Origin: Hansschlegelia quercus
GTDB taxonomy: Bacteria > Pseudomonadota > Alphaproteobacteria > Rhizobiales > Methylopilaceae
NCBI RefSeq assembly: GCF_004310425.1
Contig: NZ_SIUB01000001.1
Span: forward strand, 372,001 to 436,000
DNA length: 64,000 nt
Direction: 5' to 3'
Each line of letters opens with the position of its first letter. The stretch's first letter is position 1. Below are positions 2,244 through 39,507 of the stretch, piece by piece. The position numbers were made by a program, and so were the translations under genes. The notes under the pieces were generated by a model. The model saw only the letters and a program-made list of their open reading frames with translations, was not told the origin of the DNA and did no database searches.

Positions 2244-2999
2244 TCAGGCGCCCTGGCCCACTCCGAAGCGGCCAAGCCCGGGTAGATTGATCGCAGGCCG
2301 CCGAAGCTCGAACCCGACGATCGCGCCCAGCACGTTGATCTCAATGCCCTCCAGCCAGCCGATCGTCACGCCGCCATAGCCGCCGAGCGTGAAGCGGAAG
2401 CCGGTCTTGGACGGCGTCAGAGAGAGCCATTTGCCACCATAGGGATAGTCCTTGCCGATCGCTGTCGTCGGCAATTTGGCGTCGAGTTCGGGAGCCGCCG
2501 CCATCACGGCCGCCACGAAGGTGTTCGAGTTCGGCCCTGGCCAGGCGTGGTAGTCGCCATACTCCTTGAACTTGTAGGATTCGATCGCGGCTTCGATCTG
2601 CGGGATGGCGCGCTCGGCCTTCTCGCCATCGGCGGAGAATACGACGTCCGGCGCGCGGCCGAACCATCTGCCATCGGCGATGAAGCCGTTGACGCGGACC
2701 GGCTCGCCCCACGCCGTATAATCGTAGCGGGTATAGGCGTTCGCCCCTGCCCGCTTCACGACGATCCAACAATGCGTCGCGAAGATCCCGCGCCAACGCA
2801 CCGTCCGCGCAGCGAAGACGCGCACGACGGCGTCCCTCTGCTCGTTCGCGGGACGCAGCAGGCCGGCGCTCGACCGATCGGCCGTGCTCCAATTCCGCGG
2901 GCTGTCGCCCACGGCGTAGAGCAAGGCGGAGATCGCCAGAGGGATCAAAAAGAAAAGGACGAAGCCGGAGAGAAGCCCGAGAAGGATACGTGTCATCAT
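2244..2999 (-). CDS. DUF3750 membrane-anchored protein
   Basis: The 251-residue product has one hydrophobic N-terminal segment (about residues 5-30) and then a soluble domain resembling the DUF3750 family. THCWIVVKR and later WPGPNSNTF are its most recognisable blocks. A His followed later by a WPGPNSNTF-like block recalls the NlpC/LRAT-type papain-like fold, but no function has been shown that I know of and this is inference. Two adjacent ATG codons at 2999 and 2996 are the plausible starts; the frame continues upstream, but that part reads as low-complexity shadow translation of the neighbouring gene. It is convergent with glf and divergent from the SHOCT-domain gene. Confidence 0.75.
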   Translation of the reverse strand: MMTRILLGLLSGFVLFFLIPLAISALLYAVGDSPRNWSTADRSSAGLLRPANEQRDAVVRVFAARTVRWRGIFATHCWIVVKRAGANAYTRYDYTAWGEPVRVNGFIADGRWFGRAPDVVFSADGEKAERAIPQIEAAIESYKFKEYGDYHAWPGPNSNTFVAAVMAAAPELDAKLPTTAIGKDYPYGGKWLSLTPSKTGFRFTLGGYGGVTIGWLEGIEINVLGAIVGFELRRPAINLPGLGRFGVGQGA

Positions 3000-3108
3000 C
3001 TCAGGTGAAGATGGCGAGGCCAAAGCCGTTGGAGAAGGGGTGTGGGCGCCGCAGGCCGCAGCCGAGCGCCCTATATTCCTCCTCAGTCGACGGTGTGGGG
3101 AGCAAACG

Positions 3109-3894
3109 ATGCAATCGCCTTGGAGCGAGGACGACCGTAAGGCGATTGGCGCAATCGCCGGCCAACACGGGTTCAGCGAAGACGCAGGAGTTGCGATGGC
3201 CGTCGCGCTTGCGGCCGGCGGCGGCGCGATGGCGCAGTTCGGCCATCCTGAGCTCGGCGGGATGGGGCAGTGGTCGCAGGGAGGCATGCTGATGATCGGC
3301 GACATGTTCAACGACGGTCTCAAGCATCGCGTCCGTGGTCTCGCCGACGAGCTCGCCTCCGCGATGCGCGATGGCCGCATCTCCGCCCCGAAGGCTTCCG
3401 AAAGCTGGGGCAGCAGCCGGTGGTGGCCGGAAGAGCTTGGCCAGCCTTCGTCCAGCGGCTCCCAGAACGGCCAGCGCTATGCGGTCTTCCCCGACAAGCG
3501 GCGGCTCGCGATCGAACGTGATGGGCGGGTCACGATTCATGACACGGGAGATCACCGCATCCACGGCGCCTCGCAGCAGCAGGGATCGAATTCCAACCTC
3601 GCCTTTAACGGCGATCTGGGTTCGGTGAACCTCTCGGATTTGCCGGAAATCAGGCGCTCGCCGGATGCGCGCGAGAAGCCGTCCGCGTCCTTCGAAACAG
3701 CGGCGCAGCCGTCGTTCCCTCCGTCCGAGCAGGCCAAACAGCCTCGCCCTGCGCCTGCCGCGGCCACACTTTCGTCGCCTGCGTCCGGCGACCCTATCGA
3801 ACTGATCCGCAGGCTCGCGGAGCTGCGTGATGCCGGCTTGCTGAGCGAAAGCGAATTCTCAGTAAAGAAGACCGAGCTGCTCAGCCGCCTCTGA
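3109..3894 (+). CDS. SHOCT-domain protein of unknown function
   Basis: The product is 261 residues from the ATG at 3109. The last 30 residues ([19 protein letters not shown] and onward) are a clear SHOCT domain, a short C-terminal oligomerisation module found on many otherwise unrelated proteins. The N-terminal 90 residues contain a glycine/methionine-rich stretch ([18 protein letters not shown]); the middle is Ser/Gln/Pro-rich and probably disordered. No signal peptide is evident. It stands alone between the divergent DUF3750 gene and tRNA-Pro. Only the SHOCT assignment is secure. Confidence 0.75.
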
Positions 3895-4485: not shown

Positions 4486-4545
4486 AAAGTTGATTTAACT
4501 TTTTCGCGTGTCTTATCGGCACGTCCAAACAAGGTGGACATCGCT

Positions 4546-4728
4546 ATGGTGAACTCGACCACGGTTAAGGGTGCGGCCAAGGAAGCCGCCGGCAAAGTGA
4601 AGACTGCGGCTGGCAAGGCGACGGACAATCCCAAGCTCGAGGGCAAGGGCCGGGCCGAAGAGGCCGAAGGCAAAGTTCAGAAGACGGCCGGCAAGGCTAA
4701 GACGGCAGTTAAATCCGCCCTTAAGTGA
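4546..4728 (+). CDS. CsbD-family stress protein
   Basis: This 60-residue, Lys/Ala-rich protein has the CsbD pattern: repeated VKGAAKEAAGKVK and GKGRAEEAEGKVQ blocks predicted to form short amphipathic helices. CsbD proteins are among the most abundantly induced general stress proteins in bacteria, but their molecular role is unknown. AAGGTGG lies about eight bases before the ATG at 4546, so that codon is preferred over a GTG at 4534. It is 60 bases after the DUF883 gene and probably shares its EcfG promoter. Confidence 0.9.
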   Translation: MVNSTTVKGAAKEAAGKVKTAAGKATDNPKLEGKGRAEEAEGKVQKTAGKAKTAVKSALK

Positions 4729-4735
4729 AGGGCGG
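4715..4735 (+). other. Hairpin across the csbD stop codon
   Basis: Eight-base perfect arms (4715-4722 and 4728-4735) enclose a five-base loop and straddle the csbD stop. There is no T-run, so it is more likely an mRNA 3'-end stabiliser or a partial block between csbD and the lipoprotein gene than a full terminator. Confidence 0.45.
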
Positions 4736-4742
4736 CCGGGGG

Positions 4743-4877
4743 ATGATGACTATGTACGCGCGTATCTTCGTGTTTATCGGCGCTCTCGCTTCGACGGTCG
4801 CGCTGGCCGCGTGCTCCAACACTATGGGCGGCGTCGAAGCGGACGCCGGTCAGGCCGTCGTCCGCCGCGCGAACTGA
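4743..4877 (+). CDS. Entericidin-like small lipoprotein
   Basis: The 44-residue reading frame encodes a short charged start, a hydrophobic segment (IFVFIGALASTVALA) and a lipobox LAAC followed by SNTMGGVEADAGQAV. This is the layout of entericidin A/B (EcnA/EcnB) lipoproteins, which are small cell-envelope peptides linked to stationary-phase lysis or stress. The acylated Cys would be residue 24. Three near-adjacent ATG codons (4743, 4746, 4752) follow a GGGGG stretch; the last has the best spacing and would give 41 residues. It lies 14 bases after csbD and is probably co-transcribed with it. Confidence 0.75.
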   Translation: MMTMYARIFVFIGALASTVALAACSNTMGGVEADAGQAVVRRAN

Positions 4878-4895
4878 TCGGGCGACGCGCTTCGC

Positions 4896-7800
4896 CTAAG
4901 CCGCTTCCTTCTTGTCGATCAGCTTTCTTACCGTTTCGACGAGATGGGAAAGCGATGTCCGCGATTTCGTCATTGTTGCTTCCGCGTGAAGCGTCGGGTT
5001 GAGATCGACGTCGCGAGCCGAGAAGATGATGGCGGGCACCGGCTGAGGGCTAAGCTCCCTTAGAGCCGCCAACAGATCGAGCCCTGACCCATCCTCGAGC
5101 GCCACGTCAACGATCGCCAGATCAAAGCGTCCCGAGCGAAGTTGACCGATTGCGCCTGACAAGGTGCCGACGGACACCACGTCCGCGAGGGGCGCCAGCG
5201 AGGCCGATACGACCTTGCAGAGATCGAGATCGTCCTCGACGTGCAGGATCCGAGACCGTGAGGACGCGCGCCCAAGCGAAACGCTGAGGAGTTCCGCGAT
5301 CCGCCGCGTGTCGACCGGCTTCTCCAGCCACGCGGCGACCTCGAGCGAAGCAGACTGCGGATCGCCCCCGCGCAGCGCGGCGTCGGCCGACACCACAACA
5401 ATCGGAATTCGCGAGCTCGCTGGCCGGGACCGCAATGTGCGAATCAGCGAGACGCCGTCGCCATCCGGCAGACGGAGATCGACCAGCATGGCGTCGATCC
5501 TTTCCTCCGCAACAATACGCAACGCCTCCTGAACTCCCCCTGCGGTTCGCGCCTCGAAGCCCGCGTCTCGCATCTGCTCAGCGAGGATCGTCGCGATCAG
5601 CGGGTCGTCCTCGCAGATAAGGACGCGCGCGGCCTGAGCCGACGACACCCGCACTCCTCGCTCCGAGACCGTGTGTCGCGGCAGACGAACCTCGAACTCC
5701 GCGCCGCCGCCTTCCGCGTCACGGTAGGACACTGCGCCGGCATGGCGCTCCACGATCTCGCGGGCGATGGCGAGGCCAAGCCCGGTGCCGCCCTTCCGCC
5801 GGCTGTCGGAACCGTCCGCCTGCGCGAACTTTGTGAAGATGCGGGACCGGAACGCTTCGGGCACCCCGAGCCCGCGGTCCCGGACCGAGACCACCACGAT
5901 TTCCCCCTCGGCTCTCAGACTGACGGAAACCGTCTCCCCGGCCGGTGAGAACTTGATCGCGTTCGACAGCAGGTTGGTCACCACCTGGTTGAGCCGATCC
6001 GCATCGCCGCGCACGAGCAGATCGCGCATCGAGCCGTCGAAGGCGACGGTCACGTCGAATTCGTTGGCATAGCCGTCGAGACCCTGGATCGCGTGATTGA
6101 CTATGTCGGCCATCACGAGAGTCTGAACCTCGAACGTCATCCGTCCGGCTTCGATCTTCTCGATGTCCAGAATGTCGTTGATGAGCCGCACGAGCCTCAA
6201 GCTATTCGAGTGCGCGATTGCGATCAGCCCCGCCACCTTCTCCCCGAGAGGACCCGCGGCCCCTCCTACGAGCAGACCGAGAGAGCCCGCGATCGAGGTG
6301 AGCGGCGTGCGAAGCTCGTGGCTGACCGTCGAGACGAACTCGTTCTTGAGGCGCTCGACGCGCTTGCGCTCGCTGATGTCTCGGGCGCTGACGAAGATGC
6401 GCTCCACCGCGCCATCGGGGCCGTACAGCGGCATCTGCAGCAATTCCACGGCGGTCGAGACGCCGTTCACCACCAGCTCACGCTCAATGGTCATGAGCCC
6501 AAGCGGATCGATCGTGCCGAGGAGTTCGCGCTCGAGCGCCGCTCCGATCCCCTTCGGCAGCACGTCGCGCAGCCGCTTGCCTATCACTGCCGAAGCCTCC
6601 AGGCCCGACATCTGGGCGGCGGCCGCGTTCCAGGTCTCGATCCAGAGATCGTGGCGCTCATCGACCCGCACGATGATCTTGGCGTCGGGCGAATGCTCGA
6701 ACAGCCGCCGGAACAGCGCCTCGGCCTCGGCGAGCCGCCGCTCGCGGTCCTCAATCGCTGTGGCCGACAGAGCGAGCGCGCGTCCGAGCGCCCGCACCTC
6801 GCCGGAGGAGCCCACCTGTGGTCGGGCCGAGAGATCGCCGGCCTCGAGTTCGCCGGCGTAGGCGATCAGTCTCCGCAGGGGCCGCAGGAAGGCGATTTCG
6901 CTGCCGATGACGCCAAGCGCCAATGACGCGGCGAGGATCGCCGAGATCAGGAGCAGGCGGTCATTCAGGCGGCGGTCCACCGGACCGACAACCTGCTCCC
7001 TCGGCAACCCGATAATGAGCGTGCTCTGTTCGTTCAGCACCGGCCGGGAAATGAAAACGGATGCCGCGCCGTCAAGCTCAGGGGCGATAAACGGCCTGCC
7101 GAAGCTTGAGAGCGCACGGCTGACGAAGTCTCGCGAGCGAAGATCGGATCCGATCAGTTGCGGCATATCGGGCCGGCGGGCGATCACGACGCCATTCTTG
7201 TCGACCAGCGTCGCGGAAGCCCCTTCGGCGAGCGCGCGTTCGAGCGGCGGCCCGAACGACGACAGATCAAGCGTCGCGGCGAGGATCAGGTCGTCGGAGC
7301 CGGCCACTGGATTGGTAAGCGCGATCCGCGGCTCGCCCATGTTCCGCGTCAGGAAGACGCCCGACACCGTAAAAATGCGTCGAGCGAAGGCCTCCTGCAC
7401 ATAATCCCGGTCGCCGAGGTTGAGCGACAGAATGCGCGGCGTGCTGGCGCACGCGACCGAGCCGTCGCGGCGGATCGAGTAGATCGATTTCAGCGACGCG
7501 ACCACGGGCAGGAATTCGGCCATCTCCTGCGCGCAGCTCGGCGCGGACGTCCTGACCTGCGACGACCGCGCTACAAACGCCAGCGTCTGGCGGGCCTGCT
7601 CGATCAGCGCCTCCTGCCGCTCGGCGACGATCTGCGCGGAGGCCCTGAGGCGCTCGGCGGCGTGGTCGAGCGAGATTTCGCGTTCCGAGCTCGCGAAATG
7701 CAGCATCAGCGCCGCGAGCGGCGACACGACGGCGACCCCGATATAGGCGATCTGCCAGCGCAGGCTCGTCGCAGGTCTGTCGACTCCGATCGCCACGAGC

Positions 7801-35490: not shown

Positions 35491-35565
35491 TGGTGCCCGA
35501 AACAGGGATCGAACCTGTGACCCCACCCGTGTGAAAGGTGTGCTCTCCCGCTGAGCTATTCGGGC
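35491..35565 (-). tRNA. tRNA-Val (anticodon CAC)
   Basis: A 75-base cloverleaf on the minus strand has the acceptor stem GCCCGAA/TTCGGGC and encoded CCA. The anticodon arm CACCT-TTCACAC-GGGTG gives CAC, reading GUG. One G-T pair closes the anticodon stem. Confidence 0.93.
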
Positions 35566-36306: not shown

Positions 36307-36336
36307 TTGAGGATTCCTCGTCGCTCTGCCCATAGT
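36307..36336 (+). promoter_or_regulatory. Candidate luxR promoter
   Basis: TTGAGG (36307-36312) and CATAGT (36331-36336) are 18 bases apart, about 40 bases upstream of the luxR GTG. The same hexamer pair type (TTGAGA/CATAGA) occurs before luxI. Confidence 0.45.
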
Positions 36337-36377
36337 CTGTGGCGATGAATCAGCGGCTGGCGGCTTAGGGAGCAACG

Positions 36378-37109
36378 GTGTCCGCGTTCATTAAAACCTT
36401 CGATGCGATCGAGCGCGTCAATCAGTGCGACACGCCCGAAAGGGTCTTCCATGAATTATTGAAGGTCGTTGAGCCGTACGGGTTGACCAACCTTATGGCG
36501 GGCACGATGCCTTCGCCACACGATAAGCGTGCGGAGACCAAAAGACATCTCTGGGCCGAACGGCAGCCCGAAGGCTGGATGCAACGCTACCTCCAGCAGA
36601 GTTATGTCTTCACCGATCCGGTCATTCGTCGAATCCACGGAGAGCTCAGCCCGTTCCGCTGGAGCGAGGCGCCTTTGTCCGCTGCGATCGAGACACGCCA
36701 GAAACTGATCTTCAGCGAGGCCTCCGAGTTTGGCCTCAAGGACGGGCTTGCCGTTCCGATCGTGCTCGTGGACGGCACGCTCGGCTCCGTCTCCTTTGGT
36801 GGAGGAGGTCTCGTCGACGTGCCCACGCATGCGATGGGCGAGATCAACCTGATCGCGATCTATGCGATGGGACGGGCGGTGCAACTCAGGTCCGAAACGG
36901 AGCACAGCGTACGCGCCAAGCTGACGACGCGCGAACTCGACACGCTCCGATGGGCCTGTGAGGGCCTCACCATGATCGAGATCGGCGAACGTTTGGGAAT
37001 CTCAAACCGCACGGTGGAGCTTCATCTGAAATCGGCCGCGACAAAGCTCGGGGCTCGGAACCGCGCTCATGCGGTCGCAGAAGCGTTCAGAGCCGGGATC
37101 ATCCACTGA
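36378..37109 (+). CDS. LuxR-family acyl-homoserine-lactone-responsive regulator
   Basis: The 243-residue protein is a full LuxR/TraR-type quorum-sensing regulator. Residues that contact acyl-homoserine lactone in the family are present: Trp and Tyr in GWMQRYLQQSY, Asp-Pro in FTDPVIRR, Trp in PFRWSEA and Gly in FGLKDGLAVPI. The C-terminal helix-turn-helix has LTTRELDTLRWACEGLTMIE and SNRTVELHLKSAATKLGARN. It should bind the signal made by the adjacent LuxI and act at the dyad at 37112. The start is GTG at 36378 behind AGGGAG. It is immediately upstream of luxI on the same strand, the usual layout. Confidence 0.94.
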   Translation: MSAFIKTFDAIERVNQCDTPERVFHELLKVVEPYGLTNLMAGTMPSPHDKRAETKRHLWAERQPEGWMQRYLQQSYVFTDPVIRRIHGELSPFRWSEAPLSAAIETRQKLIFSEASEFGLKDGLAVPIVLVDGTLGSVSFGGGGLVDVPTHAMGEINLIAIYAMGRAVQLRSETEHSVRAKLTTRELDTLRWACEGLTMIEIGERLGISNRTVELHLKSAATKLGARNRAHAVAEAFRAGIIH

Positions 37110-37111
37110 AT

Positions 37112-37127
37112 TAGGGGAATTCCCCTA
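37112..37127 (+). promoter_or_regulatory. lux-type box (LuxR binding site)
   Basis: TAGGGGAATTCCCCTA is a perfect 16-bp palindrome, three bases after the luxR stop and four bases before the -35 hexamer of luxI. Position and size fit a LuxR-type activator site for positive feedback on luxI. Confidence 0.8.
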
Positions 37128-37130
37128 TAC

Positions 37131-37159
37131 TTGAGACTGCGGAATATCCCGATCATAGA
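37131..37159 (+). promoter_or_regulatory. luxI promoter
   Basis: TTGAGA (37131-37136) and CATAGA (37154-37159) are spaced by 17 bases. The dyad at 37112-37127 lies just upstream, as in class II-like LuxR-activated promoters. The start codon is 25 bases downstream of the -10. Confidence 0.65.
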
Positions 37160-37184
37160 CCCGTCGCCAACCGCGGAGGGTGAA

Positions 37185-37829
37185 ATGATCAAGGTCATCG
37201 CAGGATGTGACGTCGGTCACTTCGACAGTCTTTTCGATGAAATTTTCGCTCTTAGACATAAAGTCTTCGTTGAAGAGCTTGGCTGGGAGGAAATCCGTCG
37301 GCCCGACGGACGAGAAATCGACCAGTTCGATGACGATTACGCTGTCCATCATGTCGCGTTCCGAGACGGACGCGTGTCGGGCTACCAGCGCATGCTTTCC
37401 ATGGCGCGACCGAACCTTCTTCGGAACGTCTACCCGGAACTCTGCGAACTTGAAATTCCGTCCTCTCCCGACGTCTGGGAGCTGACCCGCTACGCTGTCG
37501 CGCCCGAGTATCGAGAGGGCAAGCGATCGGTGGGTTCCGTGGGCACGGAGTTGATCGCGGGCTTCGTGGAGTGGGGCCTCGCCTCAGGCGTCAACAAGGT
37601 CATCATCGAGTTTGAGCCGATGTGGGTGTTCCGCGCGATGGGGCTCGGCTTTCTGCCTCGGCCGCTCGGGCTGCCGGCGGAGGTCGGCCAACAGACGATC
37701 GTGCCGACCGAAGTGACGTTCAGCGAGCGGACGCTTCTGAAGATCCGCGAGACGATGGGCCGCCACGATCCTGTCGTCTGTTTCATGGGGACCCTCGCCG
37801 AGCAGCGGCGTGTCCGTCTCGCGTCGTGA
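37185..37829 (+). CDS. LuxI-family acyl-homoserine lactone synthase
   Basis: The 214-residue enzyme makes an acyl-homoserine lactone from S-adenosylmethionine and an acyl-ACP or acyl-CoA. Conserved family residues are visible: Arg, Phe and Trp in ALRHKVFVEELGWE, the acidic pair in EIDQFDDDYAVHHVAF, Arg in SGYQRMLS, and WELTRYAVAPEYR. GGAGGG nine bases before the ATG at 37185 decides the start. The downstream crotonase (9 bases away) and three small genes probably belong to the same operon. The acyl chain cannot be predicted, but the crotonase suggests an unsaturated or otherwise modified chain. Confidence 0.95.
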   Translation: MIKVIAGCDVGHFDSLFDEIFALRHKVFVEELGWEEIRRPDGREIDQFDDDYAVHHVAFRDGRVSGYQRMLSMARPNLLRNVYPELCELEIPSSPDVWELTRYAVAPEYREGKRSVGSVGTELIAGFVEWGLASGVNKVIIEFEPMWVFRAMGLGFLPRPLGLPAEVGQQTIVPTEVTFSERTLLKIRETMGRHDPVVCFMGTLAEQRRVRLAS

Positions 37830-37838
37830 GGCCGAGAC

Positions 37839-38597
37839 ATGGCTGACATTTCCATCAGGCGAGAAGGTGCGGTCCGCATCATCGAAATGGCCGAACCCGC
37901 AAGCGGGTTGACCCTCGACAATCTGCGAACCTTCACAGAGGCCTTAGAAACGGCGCAGCAAGACGACGAGACGGCGGCCGTCCTTCTCGTCGGCCCAGCC
38001 GACGCATTCTGCTCCGGCTGCGATCTCGGGGACTTCCTGGGATGCGGCGATCTCGACGAACTCGCCGGGACCGTTCGCAGCTTCTTCCGAGCGCTCGCGC
38101 TCGGCAGCAAACCTCTGGTCGCGGCGGTCGATGGCCCAGCCGTCGGGCTCGGCATGACAATGTTGCTTCACTTCGACGCCGTCTTCGCCACTCCGGCGAG
38201 CAGCTTCGCAGCGCCCTTCGCCGATCTAGGTCTTGTTCCAGAGGCCGCGGCGACGCTGATCGCCCCGTTGAGGTTCGGCTATCTTCGCGCCTTCGAGATG
38301 CTCTGCGTCGGGCGCCCGTTCTCCGCAACGGAGGCGCATGCTCTCGGATTGGTGACGGAAGTCACCGATCCCGAAAGAGCAAGCGAACGTGCGCTGCATG
38401 TCGCATCGCGTTTGGCTCGAAAGCCGAAAGCAGCGCTCCAGGCGACCCGGGCTCTGCTTCGGGCCGACCCCATCGACATCGAGTCTCGGATCGACGCGGA
38501 AATCGCCGAGTTCAGGGCCCGTCTAGAAGACGCGGCCACTGTCAAACGACTAGGCCGGCTCTTGCGGATGGCCGACCAAGCTCGCTCAGCGGCCTGA
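37839..38597 (+). CDS. Crotonase-family enoyl-CoA hydratase/isomerase linked to luxI
   Basis: The 252-residue crotonase has both oxyanion-hole segments (DAFCSGCDLGDF and DGPAVGLGMTML). The helix that carries the first catalytic Glu of enoyl-CoA hydratases reads FAAPFADLG, so that Glu is replaced, while LGLVPEAAATLIAPLRFG has a Glu at the place used by delta3,delta2-enoyl-CoA isomerases. It may therefore move a double bond rather than hydrate. It starts nine bases after luxI and is followed at four bases by a small gene, so it probably supplies or modifies the acyl donor for the quorum signal. LuxI-crotonase pairs tied to unsaturated signals have, to my recollection, been described in Mesorhizobium. 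Confidence 0.88.
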   Translation: MADISIRREGAVRIIEMAEPASGLTLDNLRTFTEALETAQQDDETAAVLLVGPADAFCSGCDLGDFLGCGDLDELAGTVRSFFRALALGSKPLVAAVDGPAVGLGMTMLLHFDAVFATPASSFAAPFADLGLVPEAAATLIAPLRFGYLRAFEMLCVGRPFSATEAHALGLVTEVTDPERASERALHVASRLARKPKAALQATRALLRADPIDIESRIDAEIAEFRARLEDAATVKRLGRLLRMADQARSAA

Positions 38598-38601
38598 AGC
38601 C

Positions 38602-38841
38602 GTGGCGAAGGAAAAGGTTGTAAGCCTCACCTCAACTCAGCTGTCCGAAATCTTCTTCGATCTCTCGGATCAAGCCTCTCAGCAGGGACATGTGTATCTT
38701 CATTACCTTCTGCAGAACGCGGCGATCGAAGCCGCGGCGCTCGACTCCGAGTTTGTGACTGGCGGACTTACCGTCAATGCGGCTCGGCCGGATCTGTTCG
38801 AAGGGCTAAGGCGAGCAAGCCGGTTGTTTTGGCTCAGGTAA
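38602..38841 (+). CDS. Small unknown protein in the luxI operon
   Basis: The 79-residue protein starts at GTG 38602, four bases after the crotonase stop, and so is probably translated with it. It is soluble and helical, with blocks such as LTSTQLSEIFFDLSDQASQQ and VYLHYLLQNAAIEAAAL. No domain or signal peptide is recognised. The tight spacing is the main evidence that it is real and part of the quorum-sensing operon. Confidence 0.6.
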   Translation: MAKEKVVSLTSTQLSEIFFDLSDQASQQGHVYLHYLLQNAAIEAAALDSEFVTGGLTVNAARPDLFEGLRRASRLFWLR

Positions 38842-38932
38842 GAATAAGCCAGAATCTCGCCTCAATCTTTGCCGAGCGGACTCCTCAGGCCTCGCGCCAC
38901 GCCATATCTCTTAAAAAAAATGGGAGGACGCG

Positions 38933-39148
38933 ATGCCCTACAACATCATCATCGAAGACGGCCGAAAGCGCATCCATCATGCTCGCACCGCTCAGGACGC
39001 TTTGGCGTTCGCGCTCGCCAAGCGCGCCGAGCATCCGGATCTTCGGATCGTTTCAAACGAGGGCGCGGTCCTCGAGATCGATCGGCTGGAACTGATGGCG
39101 CGCGCCGAGGCGGCTCAGCGACCAGTATCCGCGCCACGGGCTGCCTGA
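38933..39148 (+). CDS. Small unknown protein downstream of luxI, copy 1
   Basis: The 71-residue soluble protein begins MPYNIIIEDGRKRIHHARTA, then DALAFALAKRAEHPDLRIV and GAVLEIDRLELM. GGGAGGA lies six bases before the ATG. Its order of short beta, helix, beta (strand, T-x-x-D-x-L-A helix, then a V-S/K-N/D-x-x-x-L-E-I/V-D strand) is shared with the next small gene, so the two look like diverged copies. The function is unknown. It lies 91 bases after the preceding gene. Confidence 0.65.
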   Translation: MPYNIIIEDGRKRIHHARTAQDALAFALAKRAEHPDLRIVSNEGAVLEIDRLELMARAEAAQRPVSAPRAA

Positions 39149-39321
39149 AGCGCGAACTGGACGGCTGAGATCAAGGCTGCAGCCGAAGCGGAGCCTCACG
39201 GCTCGTCGACGCCGTCGTCAGCCTAATTCGAGTGGGGAGACGTTAACTTCCCGGTAACTTTTCGCTTGCCGGATGTTGCGTTGCAGCGTTTGATTACGCA
39301 CCCGCAGCGGAGGTTACGACC

Positions 39322-39507
39322 GTGGCTTATATCGTGCGCTGGGTGCCGACCGGCCCCGAGATGATCGTCAGCTGCCCCACGCCGGACGACGTCCTGGCGC
39401 TTGCCGACGAGTTGATCGCAACCGGCCGATCGAGCGACATCACAGTCGTCAAAGACGGACTCGAAGTCGACCTCGCCAGCCTCAAGGCCCAGCCGGCGCT
39501 GAGCTGA
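39322..39507 (+). CDS. Small unknown protein downstream of luxI, copy 2
   Basis: The 61-residue protein starts with GTG at 39322 behind GCGGAGG. It reads MAYIVRWVPTGPEMIVSC, then TPDDVLALADELIATGRSSD and ITVVKDGLEVDLASLK. The pattern matches the preceding small protein: an N-terminal M-x-Y strand, a T-x-x-D-x-L-A helix and a final strand ending L-E-V-D. It is separated by 173 bases from that gene and may have its own promoter. No function is known to me. Confidence 0.6.
   Translation: MAYIVRWVPTGPEMIVSCPTPDDVLALADELIATGRSSDITVVKDGLEVDLASLKAQPALS

What the first reader, a model, noticed from the sequence alone, without database searches (positions are those of the whole stretch)
36307..39507. 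LuxI-crotonase operon with three unknown small proteins: a possible modified quorum signal
A luxR-luxI pair with a perfect 16-bp dyad before luxI is followed at 9 bp by a crotonase and at 4 bp by a 79-residue unknown protein. Two small proteins of similar layout come next. The crotonase looks more like a double-bond isomerase than a hydratase, because the first hydratase Glu is replaced and a Glu in the LGLVPEA segment remains. This suggests a signal with an unusual double-bond position, with small proteins that may tune synthesis or sensing. Seen directly: spacing, dyad and motifs. Inference: the chemistry and the operon's outer limit.
Basis: partly seen in the sequence, partly recalled or inferred. 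Interest (0 to 1): 0.75.

Follow-up and report, generated by a model that had tools for sequence, protein, structure and literature searches.

The report
Quorum-signal operon with small helical protein
A bacterium related to Methylopila carries a known kind of three-gene quorum-sensing circuit thought to make an unusual unsaturated signal, plus a fourth small gene from an unnamed protein family that turns up repeatedly beside quorum-signal genes and may carry the message to a second regulator.

Summary
In detail: luxR, a perfect 16-bp dyad, luxI, a crotonase 9 bp on, a 79-aa ORF 4 bp further on. The luxR-luxI-crotonase part is published: the Mesorhizobium R1-I1-mlr5639 circuit (2E,4E-C12:2-HSL; a Methylopila strain is in that paper's Fig. 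5 legend). The isomerase idea is strengthened: in 17 of 17 luxI-linked crotonases both hydratase glutamates are lost (T, F) and one acid (E in 10, D in 7) sits where I recall the ECI2/PaaG catalytic acid. I propose that it turns 2E,5Z- into 2E,4E-dienoyl-CoA. New here: the 79-aa protein is no orphan. It belongs to an unnamed Hyphomicrobiales family whose usual copy lies between dprA and topA (14 of 19 loci). A model built from 16 members not linked to luxI picked 16 of 5245 small ORFs in 97 luxI loci at E<0.001; 15 lie downstream of luxI, one beside luxR, in five genera. By position it resembles MmaP and CinS, luxI-cotranscribed proteins that bind PraR; a praR-metK-trmB locus is present, but homology to MmaP-type proteins was tested and not found. 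The 71- and 61-aa proteins belong to a genus-wide multi-copy family, probably not part of the circuit.

The parts
36378..37109 (+). luxR-type receptor/regulator (243 aa)
   Evidence: PF03472 E 4.4e-24, PF00196 E 2.6e-15; 70% identical to the LuxR of two congeneric triads, L011 and L012
37112..37127 (.). 16-bp perfect dyad TAGGGGAATTCCCCTA, likely LuxR binding site for the luxI promoter (inferred)
   Evidence: identical in L042, near copy in L002
37185..37829 (+). luxI-type acyl-homoserine lactone synthase (214 aa), the only Autoind_synth match in this genome
   Evidence: PF00765 E 5e-18; one match in the whole genome; 56-59% identical to LuxIs of triads in unnamed family f24 and in Pinisolibacter
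37839..38597 (+). crotonase-superfamily enzyme (252 aa) without the hydratase glutamates, probably an isomerase
   Evidence: PF00378 E 2.3e-32; T107, F127, E135 at the three columns
38602..38841 (+). 79-aa protein, predicted helical hairpin, of an unnamed Hyphomicrobiales family (usual copy between dprA and topA) that recurs beside luxI
   Evidence: E 1.7e-6 with a model lacking luxI-linked rows, 3.1e-6 with a stricter one; helices 11-27 and 31-50; no Pfam/NCBIfam family over cut-off
38933..39148 (+). 71-aa small protein of a genus-wide multi-copy family; probably not part of the circuit
39322..39507 (+). 61-aa small protein, same family as the 71-aa one; probably not part of the circuit

Best explanation
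The locus is a luxR-luxI-crotonase circuit of the Mesorhizobium R1-I1-mlr5639 kind with a fourth, QS-driven gene. Proposed working: (1) LuxR with signal binds the dyad at 37112-37127 and drives luxI, the crotonase and the 79-aa gene as one transcript (inferred from spacing and the conserved dyad). (2) The crotonase is an enoyl/dienoyl-CoA isomerase that diverts 2E,5Z-dodecadienoyl-CoA, expected from beta-oxidation of cis-vaccenate (three rounds give 5Z-dodecenoyl-CoA, then dehydrogenation), to conjugated 2E,4E-dodecadienoyl-CoA (inferred from the active site and from the reductase-dependent route for odd double bonds; recalled biochemistry). (3) LuxI joins this acyl-CoA to S-adenosylmethionine, giving 2E,4E-C12:2-HSL or a near relative (inferred from the published homologue). 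(4) The 79-aa protein is an output adaptor: made when the signal has built up, it binds and disables a second transcription factor, most likely the XRE regulator PraR, as MmaP does in Methylobacterium and CinS in Rhizobium (inferred; shown are only the recurrent luxI linkage, a hairpin prediction and a praR locus).
For: Published genetics of the homologous triad (PMC10470506: abstract, introduction, discussion and passages seen). Crotonase within 500 bp downstream of luxI in 18 of 95 luxI loci, and in 16 of 17 with LuxI at least 50% identical (13 of 14 after dropping a duplicate and two loci that had been fetched by crotonase similarity). On a tree of 93 LuxIs (counted) one clade of 19 holds all 17 triads; 3 label changes, against 11 or more in 500 shuffles. 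Active-site columns T/F/acid in 17 of 17, against E/E/G in another crotonase of the same genome, L199. Model built without luxI-linked rows: 16 small ORFs at E<0.001, all beside luxI or luxR (the same 16 with 13 rows); two hits at E<=1, best 0.6, in five shuffled sets. A praR-like gene before metK (by eye) and trmB, the order by which PMC10790750 identified PraR (passages).
Against: No signal chemistry or transcript exists for this species. hhalign finds no homology between the 79-aa family and MmaP-type proteins (Prob 0.1 and 0.2), so the PraR step rests on position and layout. M. capsulata has the triad and a dyad but no ORF that the family model hits, and the same holds for the other triads except L042 and L046, so the fourth gene is not needed for the circuit. 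The rows of the model were themselves collected with a profile that held seven luxI-linked rows of eight, so hits in g1, g37 and g22 are less independent than those in g106 and g17. The ECI2/PaaG assignment of the acid is recalled, not tested. The same T/F/E residues occur in crotonases not known to be luxI-linked (4nek, 5ve2, 7bor, 6lvo; L007), so they mark a broad subfamily, not a signal enzyme.
Confidence: 0.55

Rival explanations
1. The 79-aa protein acts on the circuit itself, as an antiactivator of LuxR or a partner of LuxI or the crotonase.
For: It is co-linear with luxI and the crotonase; in L046 a family member lies between luxI and crotonase and overlaps the luxI stop.
Against: Family members also sit beside luxI genes without a crotonase (L080 and others of g37, L061, L074, L052), and the usual copy lies between dprA and topA with no luxI within about 1.5 kb, so neither crotonase nor LuxI is a general partner. 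Triads without it exist.
Confidence: 0.25
2. The crotonase makes a 2E-monounsaturated or other acyl-CoA, so the signal differs from 2E,4E-C12:2-HSL (for instance a 2E,7Z-C14:2 or 2E,5Z-C12:2 type).
For: LuxI is only 56-59% identical to those of the f24 triads, and the acid is Glu here but Asp there; other Alphaproteobacteria make 2E,7Z-C14:2-HSL and 2E,5Z-C12:2-HSL (named in PMC10470506).
Against: Loss of both hydratase glutamates argues against hydratase chemistry; the single luxI clade of the triads favours one chemistry.
Confidence: 0.3
3. The 79-aa ORF is a stray copy of the dprA-topA small protein, expressed by read-through at most, with no QS role.
For: Only 33% identical to its congeneric relative in L042; no relative detected in the M. 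capsulata triad; the genome also holds an unlinked paralogue, L041.
Against: 16 of 16 hits at E<0.001 in the luxI loci lie beside luxI or luxR, in five genera, though only g106 and g17 were unseen when the family was collected; the linkage changes 8 times on the luxI tree, which fits repeated gain, or loss.
Confidence: 0.2

Closest known systems
Mesorhizobium japonicum R1-I1-mlr5639 three-gene circuit (PMC10470506)
   Same: luxR, luxI and crotonase in the same order and nearly the same spacing (8 bp luxI-crotonase there, 9 bp here); the paper's Fig. 5 legend names Methylopila sp. M107 as a holder
   Different: A 79-aa family member follows here and none was seen in the five f24 triads looked at; Glu instead of Asp at the single acidic position compared with the seven f24 crotonases, which are Mesorhizobium-like by inference, not by name
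MmaI-MmaP of Methylobacterium fujisawaense (PMC10790750)
   Same: Small protein (59 aa) encoded directly downstream of a luxI and co-transcribed with it; its partner PraR has a candidate orthologue in this genome
   Different: No crotonase is mentioned in that paper (0 occurrences); no detectable homology between MmaP-type proteins and the 79-aa family
CinI-CinS of Rhizobium leguminosarum (PMC4149787)
   Same: Small protein co-transcribed with luxI, binding PraR
   Different: No CinS sequence was at hand; a candidate from locus L110 was not hit by the family model
ECI2 / PaaG-type enoyl-CoA isomerases (e.g. 4u18, 4fzw_C)
   Same: Clear sequence relatives; a single acid at the position recalled as catalytic
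   Different: Substrate; matches of about 5e-23 and 4e-24, weaker than 4nek and 5ve2, whose names give no tested function here

Membership tests
R1-I1-crotonase three-gene QS circuit | luxR, luxI and crotonase gene adjacent, same strand, luxI and crotonase few bp apart | tested here: met
R1-I1-crotonase three-gene QS circuit | LuxI in one clade with the other triads | tested here: met
   clade of 19 LuxIs holding all 17 triads, support 0.87; MAFF 303099 I1 itself was not in the tree by name
R1-I1-crotonase three-gene QS circuit | Crotonase of the same subfamily with conserved active site | tested here: met
   T/F/acid in 17 of 17; 43-47% identical to the seven f24 crotonases
R1-I1-crotonase three-gene QS circuit | 2E,4E-C12:2-HSL made, crotonase needed for it | not testable with these tools
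   needs LC-MS/NMR and a deletion
MmaP/CinS-type PraR antagonists | Small protein encoded downstream of luxI in one transcript | tested here: inconclusive
   position met, but behind the crotonase; co-transcription not testable
MmaP/CinS-type PraR antagonists | Sequence homology to MmaP-type proteins | tested here: not met
   hhalign Prob 0.1 and 0.2; the second alignment is ungapped over 43 columns but P is 0.3
MmaP/CinS-type PraR antagonists | PraR orthologue in the genome, before metK and trmB | tested here: met
   L126 1979-2401, HTH_3; metK 2474-3700 by eye; trmB PF02390. Other XRE proteins of the genome were not examined
MmaP/CinS-type PraR antagonists | Binds PraR | not testable with these tools
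   needs pull-down or EMSA
Hyphomicrobiales dprA-topA small-protein family (unnamed) | Match to a profile built from members not linked to luxI | tested here: met
   E 1.7e-6 (16 rows) and 3.1e-6 (13 rows) among 5245 ORFs
Enoyl-CoA hydratase (crotonase proper) | Two catalytic Glu (144 and 164, rat numbering, recalled) | tested here: not met
   T and F at the columns where L199 of the same genome has E and E

The most novel reading that the evidence does not exclude
An ancient, unnamed small protein encoded between dprA and topA in Hyphomicrobiales has been captured repeatedly by luxI operons and turned into an adaptor, made in proportion to quorum, that disables an XRE-type regulator. CinS and MmaP would be further cases, converged or too far diverged to align, so that QS operons of this order often carry a four-part kit: receptor, synthase, signal-tailoring enzyme, adaptor.
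Probability: 0.3. Interest if true: 0.75.

Novelty: new variant of a known kind. Interest (0 to 1): 0.5.

Why it matters
The three-gene circuit is known, but what its crotonase does was left open by its discoverers. The active-site result and the cis-vaccenate route give a specific, cheap biochemical test. The small-protein result names a candidate for what such circuits control, and gathers a scatter of ORFs beside luxI in five genera into one testable family with a conserved chromosomal home copy for which I found no family model (two home copies scanned) and no paper (one search).

Tried and rejected
Plain protein search of the 79-aa protein in 297 genomes of the order found only the window's own genome, with one weak paralogue (E 3.4e-4); it looked like an orphan until luxI neighbourhoods were read. 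I first took the unnamed genus g37 for Methylobacterium and its luxI-linked ORF for MmaP; genome sizes up to 10.4 Mb spoke against it (Bradyrhizobium-like, by size and a recalled BjaI sequence), and I corrected this in the notebook. A plasmid search gave no name for g37. The f24 triads (genera g64, g132) I call Mesorhizobium-like: this is inferred; two plasmid searches gave only partial matches, for L107 best to Mesorhizobium amorphae, 79.8% over 24% of the query, for L048 none to Mesorhizobium in the counts by genus. MmaP-type proteins were found in genus g85; the LuxI of its member G117 is 98.6% identical to that of a named Methylobacterium bullatum plasmid. That these are MmaP itself is inferred, since no call gave an MmaP sequence. 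Homology of the 79-aa family with them was tested twice and not found. A candidate for CinS (L110; relatives on Rhizobium plasmids) stays unverified; the CinS paper is not held. Pfam, NCBIfam and PHROGs give no family over cut-off or below E 0.02 for the three small proteins. An earlier count said that the home copy lies between dprA and topA in 6 of 7 loci; one search shows topA in 6 of 7 and dprA readable in three, so I rely (14 of 19). Literature searches bearing on novelty; one search returned nothing. Promoter scan: 0 sites (0.6 expected); terminator scan: 4 against 2.5 expected; no help for the operon limit. No fold search was run on the hairpin model: two helices match too much. A treekit run failed on overlapping groups and was redone with FastTree.
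Full report
What was checked. The finding's coordinates, gaps and dyad are right. luxR ends at 37109, the dyad TAGGGGAATTCCCCTA fills 37112-37127, luxI runs 37185-37829, the crotonase starts 9 bp later, and the 79-aa ORF (GTG start) 4 bp after that. Pfam confirms the three large genes and finds nothing over cut-off for the small ones. The window lies in a 3.58-Mb genome of 17 contigs with a single Autoind_synth match.

The core is known. Suo et al. 2023 (PMC10470506; abstract, introduction, discussion and passages seen) describe a luxR-luxI-crotonase element in Mesorhizobium japonicum whose crotonase gene mlr5639 begins 8 bp after luxI and whose deletion leaves little of the signal N-(2E,4E-dodecadienoyl)-HSL; the legend of Fig. 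5 lists Methylopila sp. M107 as a holder. Here the LuxI search of 397 genomes of the order found matches in 86 (E<=1e-15). The crotonase search of the named genome collection gave 8 loci, five of them luxI triads (L002-L006) and three without luxI (L007-L009). Of 95 luxI loci examined, 18 have a crotonase within 500 bp downstream, and 16 of the 17 with LuxI at least 50% identical do. One of these is a duplicate (L003 and L045 are one contig) and two (L004, L006) had been fetched by crotonase similarity; without these three it is 13 of 14. On a LuxI tree of 93 sequences all 17 triads fall in one clade of 19 (support 0.87; the other two are L043 and L058), with 3 label changes against a minimum of 11 in 500 shuffles. 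The simplest reading is that the pairing arose once and was mostly kept.

What the crotonase probably does. In the 17 luxI-linked crotonases aligned, the two hydratase glutamate columns read T and F, and a single acid stands eight residues after the second: E in 10, D in the 7 from the unnamed family f24 (Mesorhizobium-like by inference). Another crotonase of the window's genome (L199, one of four ECH_1 matches) reads E, E and G in the same alignment, which fixes the columns. From memory, the acid's position is that of the catalytic acid of ECI2/Eci1p and PaaG and of Asp204 of dienoyl-CoA isomerase; human ECI2 and a PaaG are among the sequence relatives with solved structures. The four nearest solved relatives, whose alignments were printed, carry the same T, F and E, so this is a subfamily mark, not one of signal enzymes alone. 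The discoverers say that the role of the crotonase is still open. Textbook beta-oxidation of cis-vaccenate (common in these bacteria; recalled) yields 5Z-C12:1-CoA after three rounds, and dehydrogenation gives 2E,5Z-C12:2-CoA. A 2,5 to 3,5 to 2,4 isomerisation, as in the reductase-dependent route for odd double bonds, gives exactly 2E,4E-C12:2-CoA. I therefore propose that the crotonase is this isomerase. No title or abstract start listed makes the link; that is one search of an open-licence library.

The dyad. The identical 16-mer begins 75 bp before luxI in L042 (73 bp here) and a near copy lies at that place in M. capsulata. In three g37 loci whose luxI is followed by a family member, a dyad with the core TGGGAAATTTCCCA begins 71-76 bp before luxI. 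The other triads listed show no perfect palindrome of 12 bp or more at that place. A LuxR binding site is the natural reading, untested.

The 79-aa protein. A search of 297 genomes gave only a weak paralogue in the same genome. Reading luxI neighbourhoods showed look-alikes. A profile of eight of them, seven luxI-linked, hit 213 of 397 genomes at E<=0.01, in most of those listed once; at most 15 candidates per genome were scored. Of 19 best-scoring loci outside the luxI set, 14 have the ORF between dprA and topA, and none has a luxI within about 1.5 kb. The ORFs are 57 to 117 aa as called, starts uncertain. Two such members and the window protein have no family over cut-off in Pfam or NCBIfam. 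The main test is: a model from 16 members not linked to luxI (15 of those 19 loci plus L041) was run against 5245 small ORFs of 97 luxI loci. It gave 16 hits at E<0.001: 15 on the luxI strand downstream (two of them behind a crotonase, the window's at 1.7e-6), and one divergent beside luxR (L052). Weaker hits up to E 1 were L061 (0.057), L103 (0.081), L052 (0.11), all downstream of luxI, and L053 (0.58), far from it. Only 175 of the 5245 ORFs (3.3%) lie just downstream of luxI. Shuffled ORFs gave two hits at E<=1 in five sets, best 0.6, with this model and likewise two, best 0.62, with the full one. A stricter model of 13 rows gave the same 16 hits. They come from five genera: g37 (8 hits), g22 (4), g1 (2), g106 and g17 (1 each). 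Limits: the family was collected with a profile that already held luxI-linked members of g1, g37 and g22, so only g106 and g17 are unseen genera; and five g37 loci were added after I had seen the ORF. On the LuxI tree the linkage changes 8 times (shuffles: 12 or more), so it comes and goes. In the triads, family members follow the crotonase here and in L042 and precede it in L046. L050, L051 and L004 have other small ORFs of 60-89 aa at these places that the model does not hit; no convincing one was seen in L002, L003 and five f24 triads, and L006 has none between luxI and crotonase. The structure prediction of the window protein alone gives two helices (residues 11-27 and 31-50; pLDDT about 88 for residues 11-40) and a weak C-terminal helix; the five models differ (mean pLDDT 44 to 70).

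What it resembles. MmaP (59 aa, co-transcribed with mmaI, binds PraR, suppresses swarming; PMC10790750, passages and part 1 of the results) and CinS (co-transcribed with cinI, binds PraR; PMC4149787, passages) are small proteins in a similar position. The window's genome has an HTH_3 protein before metK and trmB, the order by which the MmaP paper identified PraR. Homology to MmaP-type proteins from genus g85 is not detectable, although the alignment is ungapped over 43 columns. So it may work like MmaP, but is not shown to be a member of that family.

The 71- and 61-aa proteins. They align with each other and with two ORFs downstream of the M. capsulata triad. Their family has 1-5 matches (E<=0.05) in 13 of 13 genomes of the genus and none in 5 genomes of sister genera; 9 of the 13 gave no LuxI match at E<=1e-15. 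In this genome the only two matches stand beside the QS operon, and two of three in M. capsulata do, but none of the three in G215 is near its luxI. A role in the circuit is unsupported, though not excluded.

Verdict. A new member of a published circuit, with a fourth gene from a family that I found unnamed and recurrently luxI-linked; its function is a testable inference.

Noticed in passing
L154, L157, L158 (genus g85, Methylobacterium by LuxI identity of one member): Proteins of about 200 aa, PAS-like by eye, whose C-terminal part matches MmaP-type proteins: the MmaP-type domain also seems to exist fused to a sensor; up to 10 matches per genome.
   Followed up: partly
L075 2689-3060 and 2855-3283 (reverse-complement coordinates); L061 5264-5632 and 5583-5855 (likewise): Two small proteins of the 79-aa family behind one luxI in genus g22.
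   Followed up: partly
L052 3447-3662, minus strand: A family member divergent to luxR, in a locus with a second, weaker one (5275-5508) that overlaps the luxI stop by 4 bp.
   Followed up: partly
L041 1540-1743, minus strand (own genome, contig C9): A second paralogue of the 79-aa protein, not near luxI, dprA or topA, beside a cation-diffusion-facilitator-like gene (by eye); the genome also has the dprA-topA copy (L192 3553-3786).
   Followed up: partly
L056 around 4530-4961 (G312, same genus): LuxI-like stretch matching only residues 1-144 (43% identity) with no luxR match in the locus: possibly a decayed luxI.
   Followed up: no
L050 after the crotonase (63 aa, 4-bp overlap), L051 (60 aa), L004 between luxI and crotonase (89 aa as called): Other small ORFs at the same places in triads, not hit by the family model.
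   Followed up: partly
window 35494-35565, minus strand: tRNA gene (Rfam RF00005) upstream of the luxR side.
   Followed up: no
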